From contig JACZQL010000075.1 in NCBI GenBank assembly GCA_022545745.1, positions 1 through 6,549 on the forward strand: a DNA stretch of 6,549 nucleotides, read 5' to 3'. Of the stretch, positions 2,793-4,016 are shown in pieces. Within the stretch, counting starts at the first letter, position 1, and each line of letters begins with the position of its first letter. The translations under genes were made by a program, and so were the position numbers. This stretch comes from Deltaproteobacteria bacterium (GTDB taxonomy: Bacteria > Desulfobacterota_B > Binatia > UBA9968). Under the pieces are notes generated by a model. It had not been told where the DNA came from. It did no database searches and was given only the letters and a program-made list of their open reading frames with translations.

Positions 2793-4016
2793 GTGCCGAA
2801 ATCATCCATTGAGGAAACCCTCAAATCACTGCGCGAGGGGAAGATTGTCATCCTAGTGGACGAGGACTCACCGGAAAGTGACGGTACCTTTTTCCTTGCA
2901 GGCGAGAAGGTGACGCCAGAGGCGATTAATTTTTTACTCAGTTATGGCCGTGGCGGGATCATCTACCTGACCTTGACGGAAGAGAAGATGAAGGAGCTGG
3001 GTATCCTCATACCGGCCCAGCCAAACGTGCCTGCCCTCAGTGCGCCCATCGGGGTCCCCATCGACGCAAAGAGCGTGTCGGGTTTTGGTGTCTCGGCCGC
3101 AGGCAGGGCGCAAACCATTAAGACTGCCGTGAGTGTAGGGGCAAAGCCAAGGGACCTAACCGTGCCGGGCAATGTCTTCCCCGCCAAGACTCAGGCAGGC
3201 GGTGTCCTGGTGAGGACCGGTCACACCGAGGCCTCAGTGGACTTGGCTCGCCTGTGCGGGTTGCAGCCCGCAGGAGTCATTTGCCGGATCTTGAGGGAAG
3301 ACGGAACCATAGCCCTGATGCCTGATTTGGGAAAAATCGCAGTGAAGCACAACCTGAAAATCGCCTCGGTGACCGATCTGATTGCCTATCGTCTGCGCAG
3401 CGAGTTGCTGATCGAGCGGGTCGGAGAATCTGTCTTTAATACCATTCATGGCACTTTCAAGGCAATTGCCTATCGGACCCATGTGGATTCCAACGAACAC
3501 CTGGCCCTGATCAAGGGCGAGATCCCTACCAGGGGAAGTGTCCTGGTACGGATGCATTCGGAGTGTCTCACAGGTGACGTCTTTGGCTCGGAACGCTGCG
3601 ATTGCGGGGATCAGATCTTTCAATCTCTCAAATTGATCAGCGAGGTGGGTAAGGGTGTTCTCATCTACATGAATCAGGAGGGGAGAGGTATCGGGCTGAC
3701 CAATAAGATCAAGGCCTATGCCCTCCAGGACCAAGGCCTGGATACGGTGGAGGCCAATCTCGAGTTGGGGTTTAAAGAGGACCTGCGAGACTATGGAATT
3801 GGCGCCCAGATACTACGGGATCTTGGAATCCAGAAATTGAGATTGCTAACCAATAACCCACAAAAGATTATCGGACTCCAGGGTTACGGTCTCACCGTGG
3901 CGGAGCGTGTCCCCATAGAGATCACACCGCACAAGTCCAACATCGGTTATCTTCGTACGAAACAGGAAAAGTTGGGCCATCTCCTGTCCAAGGTGCAAGA
4001 CCATCACGAAAAGTAG
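2793..4016 (+). CDS. ribBA: RibBA: intact GTP cyclohydrolase II fused to degenerate DHBP synthase
   Basis: The 407-residue length is normal for RibBA fusions. The C-terminal half (about 208-400) is a convincing GTP cyclohydrolase II, which opens GTP to start riboflavin synthesis. It has zinc ligands C258, C269 and C271 in HSECLTGDVF...CDC, QEGRGIGL (295-302), the catalytic equivalents of E. coli Y105, D126 and R128 at Y309, D330 and R332, and LLTNNPQK (351-358). The N-terminal half (about 1-200) has the DHBP synthase fold, which normally makes dihydroxybutanone phosphate from ribulose-5-phosphate. Its DEDRENEGD loop is replaced by D23-E-D-S-P-E-S-D-G-T32. Metal ligands E28 and H144 and the substrate-contact pair R141 and T145 remain. 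The equivalents of R37, D42, H136 and E174 are P27, T32, N127 and R165, and the Cys after GRG is gone. DHBP synthase activity is therefore doubtful. GTG at 2793 is preceded by GAGG at 2781-2784 (8-nt spacing). ribH follows after 25 bp. Confidence 0.95.
   Translation: MPKSSIEETLKSLREGKIVILVDEDSPESDGTFFLAGEKVTPEAINFLLSYGRGGIIYLTLTEEKMKELGILIPAQPNVPALSAPIGVPIDAKSVSGFGVSAAGRAQTIKTAVSVGAKPRDLTVPGNVFPAKTQAGGVLVRTGHTEASVDLARLCGLQPAGVICRILREDGTIALMPDLGKIAVKHNLKIASVTDLIAYRLRSELLIERVGESVFNTIHGTFKAIAYRTHVDSNEHLALIKGEIPTRGSVLVRMHSECLTGDVFGSERCDCGDQIFQSLKLISEVGKGVLIYMNQEGRGIGLTNKIKAYALQDQGLDTVEANLELGFKEDLRDYGIGAQILRDLGIQKLRLLTNNPQKIIGLQGYGLTVAERVPIEITPHKSNIGYLRTKQEKLGHLLSKVQDHHEK

What the first reader, a model, noticed from the sequence alone, without database searches (positions are those of the whole stretch)
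2793..3392. RibBA with a DHBP synthase domain that has lost key catalytic residues
Seen: the frame is intact, but the signature acidic loop DDEDRENEGD reads D-E-D-S-P-E-S-D-G-T (residues 23-32). By hand alignment to E. coli RibB, R37 becomes P27, E40 becomes D30, D42 becomes T32, H136 becomes N127 and E174 becomes R165. The Cys after GRG is missing, the NNT...GTGFTV substrate loop is unrecognisable, and TTGVSAADR becomes SGFGVSAAGR. Metal ligands E28 and H144, plus R141 and T145, remain. Known: in plants, RIBA paralogues exist that each lost one of the two activities. Inference: this protein supplies only GTP cyclohydrolase II, and its RibB half is structural, regulatory or repurposed. The scattered substitutions in a well-kept fold argue against a frameshift or simple decay. 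Automatic annotation would call it bifunctional, which is likely wrong.
Basis: partly seen in the sequence, partly recalled or inferred. Interest (0 to 1): 0.75.

Follow-up and report, generated by a model that had tools for sequence, protein, structure and literature searches.

The report
Vitamin B2 enzyme with dead half
A two-part vitamin B2 enzyme here has lost the working parts of one half; in most of the related genomes read it is paired with a sister protein broken in the opposite half, and in sister lineages the two may build one active site between them.

Summary
Window 2793-4016 encodes a 407-aa RibBA-type protein in a riboflavin operon. Its GTP cyclohydrolase II (GCHII) half is intact; its DHBP synthase (DHBPS) half keeps the fold but has lost the acidic loop, lid, His136 and Glu174. 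It is not isolated decay. Related genomes (probably class Binatia) carry two paralogues: "RibXA" like the window (dead DHBPS, live GCHII) and "RibBX" encoded elsewhere (live DHBPS, no GCHII zinc cysteines). Of 88 class genomes read (of 148 held), 80 show both. New here: DHBPS is a homodimer whose lid is donated by the other subunit. Outside the window's order RibXA lost key cis residues (Glu174 kept in 3 of 52) but keeps trans-donated Thr107, Asp113 and His136 in 52 of 52; RibBX keeps cis residues but Thr107 in only 4 of 53. No genome of 80 lost both lids. I infer a DHBPS site completed only in a RibBX-RibXA heterodimer there (untested). In the window's order RibXA lost the lid too and RibBX kept it, so "GCHII only" fits the window. 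The window's genome is not held, so its RibBX is inferred.

The parts
2793..4016 (+). RibXA: RibBA-type gene, 407 aa, GTG start
   Evidence: open frame; Pfam PF00926 + PF00925; inside the RibXA clade
2793..3392 (+). DHBPS-like half, fold kept, active site lost
2859..2888 (+). former acidic loop, residues 23-32 DEDSPESDGT (E. coli 33-42 DDEDRENEGD); cis part of the site
3081..3107 (+). former lid loop, residues 97-105 GFGVSAAGR (E. coli 106-114 TTGVSAADR); donated in trans in V. cholerae DHBPS
3171..3173 (+). Asn127 in place of His136 (loop 5, donated in trans)
3213..3230 (+). RTGHTE, residues 141-146, kept (E. coli R150, H153, T154)
3285..3287 (+). Arg165 in place of Glu174 (loop 3, cis)
3417..3914 (+). 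GCHII half, intact (Pfam residues 209-374)
3564..3605 (+). GCHII zinc-cysteine stretch C258...C269-D-C271
   Evidence: aligns with E. coli RibA 2bz0
291..800 (+). nrdR (named from sequence and place; not scanned against a family library)
818..1915 (+). ribD
   Evidence: TIGR00326
2144..2761 (+). ribE, riboflavin synthase
   Evidence: NF006767
4042..4506 (+). ribH, lumazine synthase
   Evidence: TIGR00114
4587..5000 (+). nusB (named from sequence and place, not scanned)
5037..6548 (+). leuS, 5' part (named from sequence and place, not scanned)

Best explanation
The window gene is RibXA: a GTP cyclohydrolase II carrying a catalytically dead DHBPS half. It is one of an old pair of RibBA paralogues that divided the two activities. 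The other, RibBX, encoded away from the riboflavin operon in the relatives, makes DHBP with its intact DHBPS half and has a GCHII half without zinc ligands. Shown: the sequence losses, the pairing in relatives, the clades, the operon position. Inferred: that residue loss means loss of activity, and that the window's own genome has a RibBX. The dead half is kept by selection, most likely because it still dimerises (with itself or with RibBX) and holds the two enzymes together. Outside the window's order that contact would be catalytic: RibXA lends its lid loop and His136 to the RibBX active site. In the window's order RibXA no longer has that lid, so there the half should be structural or regulatory only.
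For: Residue losses. Two copies per genome with mirrored scores: in the order of G001 (35 genomes) PF00926 scores fall into a high and a low set, and PF00925 scores do so in the opposite copies; 53 further class genomes split the same way by PF00925 except G268 (two high, no low) and G249 (one low match only). Of 88 class genomes read residue by residue, 80 have both paralogues readable at the lid. Sorted by GCHII cysteines alone, every copy readable in both halves falls in the expected group but one, that of G268 (161 of 162). RibXA is one clade of 69 rows including the window (SH-aLRT 99; 98 with active-site loops removed). RibXA lies with at least one gene of the window's operon in 84 of 84 loci; RibBX in 0 of 86, but 63 of those stretches are under 4 kb and only 20 over 6 kb. 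Purifying selection on the dead half: median pairwise dN/dS 0.285 for DHBPS and 0.116 for GCHII in 68 XA pairs of the order. Cis/trans evidence.
Against: No activity, binding or expression data. The window's genome is not held, and the best 120 RibBX homologues show none of the contig lengths of the nearest RibXA on long contigs (P0007, P0008, P0015). Pairwise dN/dS at median dS near 1 is rough, and outside the order the dead half has a median of 0.472. E28 and H144 remain in the window; in the order His136 is kept in 15 of 32, R150 in 30 of 32, E40 in 10 of 32 XA copies.
Confidence: 0.8

Rival explanations
1. The DHBPS half still catalyses, with residues moved to other places or with a looser mechanism, so the protein is bifunctional after all.
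For: R141, H144, T145 and E28 are kept and the fold is good.
Against: R37, T93, T107, D113 and E174 are each kept in 0 of 31 order copies with GCHII cysteines. In 122 controls chosen by an intact RENEGD loop, T107 is Thr in 120, D113 Asp in 117 and E174 Glu in 122. A second copy with intact DHBPS residues coexists in 30 of 35 order genomes.
Confidence: 0.06
2. The DHBPS half has been repurposed to bind another ligand, for example as a sensor that tunes GCHII.
For: dN/dS of the half is below 1. The mirror-image X domain of Shewanella RibBX is reported to regulate its RibB half (as cited in PMC10012899, passages).
Against: No new pocket was sought. Outside the order the sites without change cluster in the loops that reach into the partner's active site (8 of 18 in the loops as published, 11 of 18 with loop 4 extended), which points to dimer chemistry; but this does not speak for the window's order.
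Confidence: 0.25
3. Neutral decay in progress: the half is a relic that has not yet been deleted.
For: Faster evolution than the GCHII half (dN/dS 0.285 against 0.116 in the order, 0.472 against 0.198 outside).
Against: Medians stay below 1. Of 84 RibXA rows 82 are 379-429 aa as trimmed, and two are fragments. The loss predates the split of the order from the rest.
Confidence: 0.08
4. The lid changes in RibBX outside the order reflect altered chemistry of a RibBX homodimer, not a heterodimer.
For: E. coli RibB lid mutants G108S and D113G make DXP (PMC3424233, passages). A Thr108Val mutant in simulation still lets Mg2+ enter (PMC5228156). The trans loops of RibBX outside the order are not significantly short of unchanged sites as a whole (3 of 16, P 0.30); the loss sits mainly at T106 and T107.
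Against: It does not explain why RibXA, which lacks cis residues, keeps T107, G108, S110, D113 and H136 in 52 of 52 copies. RibBX keeps G108 53 of 53 and D113 49 of 53, not the DXP-making changes.
Confidence: 0.25

Closest known systems
RibBX (Shewanella, Aeromonas; A. baumannii structure 6mnz)
   Same: RibBA-type fusion with one half dead and kept; the partner copy here is of this type (live DHBPS residues, no GCHII zinc cysteines)
   Different: RibBX has the opposite half dead; in A. salmonicida GCHII comes from a stand-alone ribA (PMC10012899, passages), here from a second fusion with a dead DHBPS half
Plant RIBA3 and Arabidopsis RIBA2
   Same: loss of one activity each in fused RIBA paralogues; RIBA3 lost DHBPS, Arabidopsis RIBA2 lost GCHII (PMC3509567)
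   Different: Arabidopsis keeps a bifunctional RIBA1; here 80 of 88 class genomes show both one-sided copies and an intact bifunctional copy was read only in G268; no cis/trans lid pattern is reported in the passages and section read
NCBIfam NF006456 PRK08815 'GTP cyclohydrolase II RibA' (376 aa)
   Same: a curated model for a GCHII longer than the domain; the window matches it from residue 146 on
   Different: 211.9 bits against a cutoff of 464, and its first 121 positions are not matched; its taxonomic range was not looked at
Bifunctional RibBA (NF006803)
   Same: same domain order and similar length (profile 417)
   Different: 513.3 bits against a cutoff of 569; one of two activities missing by residue test

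Membership tests
Bifunctional RibBA | DHBPS and GCHII domains fused in one chain | tested here: met
   PF00926 183.1 bits, PF00925 244.2 bits
Bifunctional RibBA | intact DHBPS catalytic residues | tested here: not met
   R37, E40, D42, H136, E174 changed
Bifunctional RibBA | intact GCHII zinc cysteines and motifs | tested here: met
   TIGR00505 249.7 against 205.85
Bifunctional RibBA | curated family cutoff | tested here: not met
   NF006803 513.3 against 569
GTP cyclohydrolase II (RibA) | curated family cutoff | tested here: met
   TIGR00505, NF001591
GTP cyclohydrolase II (RibA) | enzyme activity | not testable with these tools
   needs assay
DHBPS (RibB) fold | fold | tested here: met
   AlphaFold2 pLDDT 85.9; Foldseek TM 0.92 to 7tye
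RibBX | live DHBPS, dead GCHII | tested here: not met
   the window has the reverse
RibXA clade described here | inside the clade of degenerate-DHBPS, intact-GCHII copies | tested here: met
RibXA clade described here | RibBX partner in the same genome | not testable with these tools
   the window's genome is not held; both copies readable in 80 of 88 class genomes
Heterodimeric DHBPS with split site (proposed for orders outside the window's) | lid kept in the dead paralogue | tested here: not met
   window lid is GFG, Phe98 for Thr107, so the window itself is not put there

The most novel reading that the evidence does not exclude
In the orders of the class other than the window's, DHBP synthase is an obligate heterodimer with one split active site: RibBX gives the acidic loop, substrate loop and Glu174, and the otherwise dead RibXA half gives the lid threonines and His136. 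The other site of the dimer has rotted on both chains, and GCHII rides on RibXA, so the two entry enzymes of vitamin B2 synthesis are locked in one complex. The window's order went the other way: RibBX kept its lid and RibXA lost it.
Probability: 0.55. Interest if true: 0.85.

Novelty: new variant of a known kind. Interest (0 to 1): 0.72.

Why it matters
It shows reciprocal loss of the two activities in paired bacterial RibBA paralogues across many genomes of what is probably one class, a bacterial counterpart of the plant RIBA story, and gives natural material for the question left open there: why dead halves of fused enzymes are kept. The orders outside the window's look like a natural record of a homodimer turning into an obligate heterodimer by losing complementary halves of its two shared sites, with the window's order, which took the other path, as a built-in control. 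It also gives a simple residue test (Thr107, Asp113, His136 against Glu174, Thr93 and the acidic loop) to tell RibBA, RibBX and RibXA apart.

Tried and rejected
Searching the window's own genome for a second ribB failed because no genome is held. No Rfam family reached its gathering score in 14 sources, 11 of them RibBX loci, 2 RibXA loci and the window (6 of the 20 sources first chosen were left out for length). Ten ORFs beside RibBX in five loci gave Pfam hits in five of them: a phosphonate-binding-like protein in both order loci scanned (in one just under its cutoff), otherwise nothing shared. Truncation of the dead half in G176 was considered: the short GCHII there (L289, 238 aa) looks unlike RibXA by eye and sits beside a regulator-like ORF, so it is not counted. 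A first lid table lost the B pieces of broken RibBX frames because two pieces of one locus shared a key; one search replaces it (77 became 80 genomes). Alignment A3 used a wrong frame for one row and was dropped. His153 as a mark of loss was rejected. Whether RibXA and RibBX arose by duplication inside the class or one was acquired from outside is not settled: the tree is unrooted, and the union of all 61 RibBX rows, with two long outside branches, has support 50 with loops removed.

Cautions. The 0-of-80 exclusion is not 80 independent cases: the tree needs only 7 changes at Thr107 over all rows, and the two lid losses map to one split. In one search copies were sorted partly by the RENEGD loop, so its counts at residues 37-42 are partly true by construction; one search sorts by GCHII cysteines alone and changes the group of one copy (G268). 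The 122 controls were chosen by RENEGD as well. The site tests treat sites as exchangeable. Results against: RibXA outside the order still keeps some cis residues (R150 42 of 52, C67 34 of 52, D33 30 of 52, E40 29 of 52, D42 24 of 52); its loop 3 is not clearly relaxed (0.92 of the half's mean rate); loop 4 as a whole runs faster than the mean even in order RibBX (1.38); the trans loops of outside RibBX are not significantly short of unchanged sites (3 of 16, P 0.30).

In print: I found no report of RibXA or of a heterodimeric DHBPS in searches of the held open-access library, seen as listings, with passages read from PMC3509567, PMC10012899, PMC5228156, PMC10366380, PMC9999580, PMC4705124 and PMC3424233 only (and section 3.3 of PMC3509567). 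Subscription papers, including the original RibBX paper (Brutinel 2013, recalled and cited in PMC10012899), were not seen.

Full report
What was checked. The finding claims that the DHBP synthase (DHBPS) half of a RibBA in the window has lost key residues. The gene is an open frame at 2793-4016 with both Pfam domains. Its neighbours ribD, ribE and ribH were confirmed by NCBIfam models; nrdR, nusB and leuS were named from sequence and place. The DHBPS model TIGR00506 falls below its cutoff and the GCHII model TIGR00505 passes. As a control, 124 distinct DHBPS domains were read from loci: 122 carry an intact RENEGD loop and the other two are RibXA copies (L001, L003). In the 122, H136, R150, T154 and E174 are each 122 of 122, T107 is Thr in 120 and Ser in 2, D113 is Asp in 117 and Glu in 5. 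One of the two Ser cases, L017, lies in G284, a genome of the class studied here, and is its RibBX, so it is not an independent control; the other is L006. His153 is His in 59 and Gln in 63, so it is not diagnostic.

The fold is kept. AlphaFold2 on the DHBPS half with 27 sequences gives mean pLDDT 85.9 and pTM 0.85, and Foldseek's best PDB matches are DHBPS structures, TM 0.92 to E. coli RibB 7tye and 0.91 to the RibBX 6mnz.

It is a family, not one broken gene. A protein search (best 120 listed of 7699) shows relatives with the same N127/R165 pattern (P0001-P0015 and P0032) and a wider set with a degenerate acidic loop, some named Candidatus Binatia. The same list holds the mirror image: P0046, P0080, P0089, P0105 and P0120, with an intact acidic loop but no GCHII zinc cysteines, P0080 named Candidatus Binatota; further RibBX homologues carry the names Binatota and Binatia.

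Two copies per genome. From a genome carrying the degenerate form (G001, titled Deltaproteobacteria bacterium RIFCSPLOWO2_02_FULL_57_26) I searched its order, which I call the window's order because the window's protein falls among its RibXA (best identity to these genomes about 66%). Of 35 genomes 31 have two or more PF00926 matches (in G154 they are pieces of one copy), and PF00925 gives the opposite ranking. In the class 134 of 148 genomes have two or more matches to the degenerate profile. In 54 chosen genomes, 53 from outside the order plus G176, 53 have two or more GCHII matches. I fetched copies and read residues (tables). Of 88 class genomes so read (35 order, 53 of the 113 others), 80 have both a RibBX and a RibXA readable at the lid. 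The other eight: three order genomes with RibBX only (G176, G180, G182); G154, with no RibBX read; G166, with no RibBX read and a lid not readable; G199, whose RibXA is cut by the contig end; G249, with one GCHII match only; and G268, which has RibXA plus an intact bifunctional RibBA that groups with outside sequences. Sorted by GCHII cysteines alone, 161 of 162 copies readable in both halves fall in the expected group; the exception is that bifunctional copy.

History. In a tree of 146 rows from 58 of these 88 genomes plus outside sequences, RibXA rows form one clade of 69 (SH-aLRT 99) and the RibBX rows of the class another of 59 with P0037 and P0119 (99); in each, the window's order is one side of the first split. 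With active-site loops removed the RibXA clade stays (98), as do the four sub-clades (95-99), though the union of all RibBX rows, with two long outside branches, has only 50. So the pair was most likely in place before the order split from the rest. The trees are quick LG+G4 searches without mixture model.

Context. RibXA lies with at least one gene of the window's operon in 84 of 84 loci; RibBX in 0 of 86, of which 63 stretches are under 4 kb and 20 over 6 kb (the 87th BX row is an outgroup RibB). No Rfam family, the FMN riboswitch included, reached its gathering score in 14 sources.

Selection. Pairwise dN/dS (NG86, dS 0.1-1.5) has medians for the DHBPS and GCHII halves of 0.285 and 0.116 in 68 RibXA pairs of the order, 0.472 and 0.198 in 509 outside, 0.131 and 0.199 in 104 RibBX pairs of the order, 0.258 and 0.370 in 629 outside. 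In each paralogue the dead half is the faster one. At median dS near 1 these are rough, but the medians are below 1.

The cis/trans pattern. In V. cholerae DHBPS each active site is built by loops 1, 2 and 3 of one monomer and by loop 4 (the lid, Thr107' and Thr108') and loop 5 of the other (PMC5228156, passages; V. cholerae numbers are E. coli plus one by alignment). I used those loops as published. Outside the window's order RibXA has lost key cis residues (R37 0 of 43, T93 1 of 52, T154 5 of 52, E174 3 of 52), though some remain in part (R150 42, E40 29, D42 24 of 52), and keeps T107, G108, S110, D113 and H136 in 52 of 52; T106 is Thr in 33 and Ser in 19. RibBX there does the reverse: T93, T154 and E174 53 of 53, R37 52 of 52, but T106 16 of 53, T107 4 of 53 and H136 42 of 53, with D113 49 of 53. 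Inside the window's order RibXA has lost both sets (T107 0 of 32, D113 0 of 32, R37 0 of 32, E174 0 of 31; H136 15 of 32) and RibBX keeps both. R37-D42 counts are partly true by construction; sorting by GCHII cysteines alone gives the same picture. Per genome: 30 have the lid threonine in RibBX only (all order), 46 in RibXA only (all outside), 4 in both (G243, G255, G256, G278; in G243 and G278 Thr106 is lost), 0 in neither; 17.2 in neither would be expected if unlinked. For His136: 54 both, 16 RibBX only, 10 RibXA only, 0 neither.

Rates. Counting changes on the tree at sites invariant in 15 bifunctional RibBA rows, outside RibXA has 0.279 per row at cis and 0.018 at trans sites (site permutation p 0.0009), outside RibBX 0.021 and 0.141 (p 0.016), order RibXA 0.179 and 0.149 (p 0.64), order RibBX 0.000 and 0.023 (p 0.32). 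Of 18 sites that never change in the DHBPS half of outside RibXA, 8 fall in the 16 trans-loop sites as published (hypergeometric 9e-6), and 11 in 20 if loop 4 is extended to R114, an extension I chose after seeing the data; order RibXA shows no such excess (3 of 16, p 0.29). In outside RibBX the two fastest of the 82 RibBA-invariant sites are T106 and T107, although its trans loops as a whole are not significantly short of unchanged sites (3 of 16, P 0.30).

Reading. A homodimeric DHBPS has two shared sites. If RibBX and RibXA pair, one site (RibBX cis, RibXA trans) can stay whole while the other (RibXA cis, RibBX trans) is free to decay; this is what the genomes outside the order show. In the window's order RibBX alone has all parts, and the RibXA half lacks both sets. 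I infer a split-site heterodimer outside the order, and for the window a GCHII with a structural or regulatory DHBPS-like half. Not shown: any physical contact, any activity, and any RibBX in the window's own genome. Against: loss of the lid threonine need not abolish activity (in simulation Thr108Val still admits Mg2+); four genomes keep Thr107 in both; the reciprocal losses are few events on the tree (7 changes at T107 overall).

Known relatives. RibBX (live DHBPS, dead GCHII half) is known, with complementation tests in Aeromonas (PMC10012899, passages) and a structure, 6mnz. Plants have RIBA3 without DHBPS activity and Arabidopsis RIBA2 without GCHII (PMC3509567, abstract, passages and section 3.3). 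What differs here is the paired reciprocal loss in 80 of 88 class genomes read and the cis/trans complementarity. No such report was found in the searches listed under Tried and rejected.

Noticed in passing
L290, L291, L292, L293: A further GCHII with intact zinc cysteines but Arg at the E. coli Tyr105 position, in open frames of 471-748 aa, in class genomes G292, G276, G243 and G253; possibly another GCHII family.
   Followed up: no
G268: L255 and L276: No RibBX was found; an intact bifunctional RibBA that groups with outside P0115 (SH-aLRT 92) coexists with a normal RibXA, as if RibBX had been replaced.
   Followed up: partly
G280 (L235, L238) and G239 (L347, L349): Two RibXA copies in G280 and two RibBX copies in G239, on different contigs; recent duplication or mixed assembly.
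   Followed up: no
RibXA loci outside the window's order: The window's RibE finds no match (E 1e-8) in 52 of 52 of these loci, while it does in 32 of 32 order loci; some loci are cut by contig ends. Riboflavin synthase may have left the operon or diverged.
   Followed up: no
L289, 3827-4543 (-): Stand-alone GCHII (238 aa) beside a regulator-like ORF in G176, where no RibXA was found.
   Followed up: partly
GCHII half, E. coli Glu53 position: Glu in 52 of 52 outside RibBX but Gln in 30 of 52 outside RibXA; in the order Lys in 32 of 32 RibBX and Glu in 31 of 31 RibXA. Gln also occurs in bifunctional RibBA, so the meaning is unclear.
   Followed up: no
L294 6967-7959 (-), L304 6870-7862 (-): A 330-aa phosphonate-binding-like protein lies near RibBX in both order loci scanned (one just under the Pfam cutoff).
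   Followed up: no
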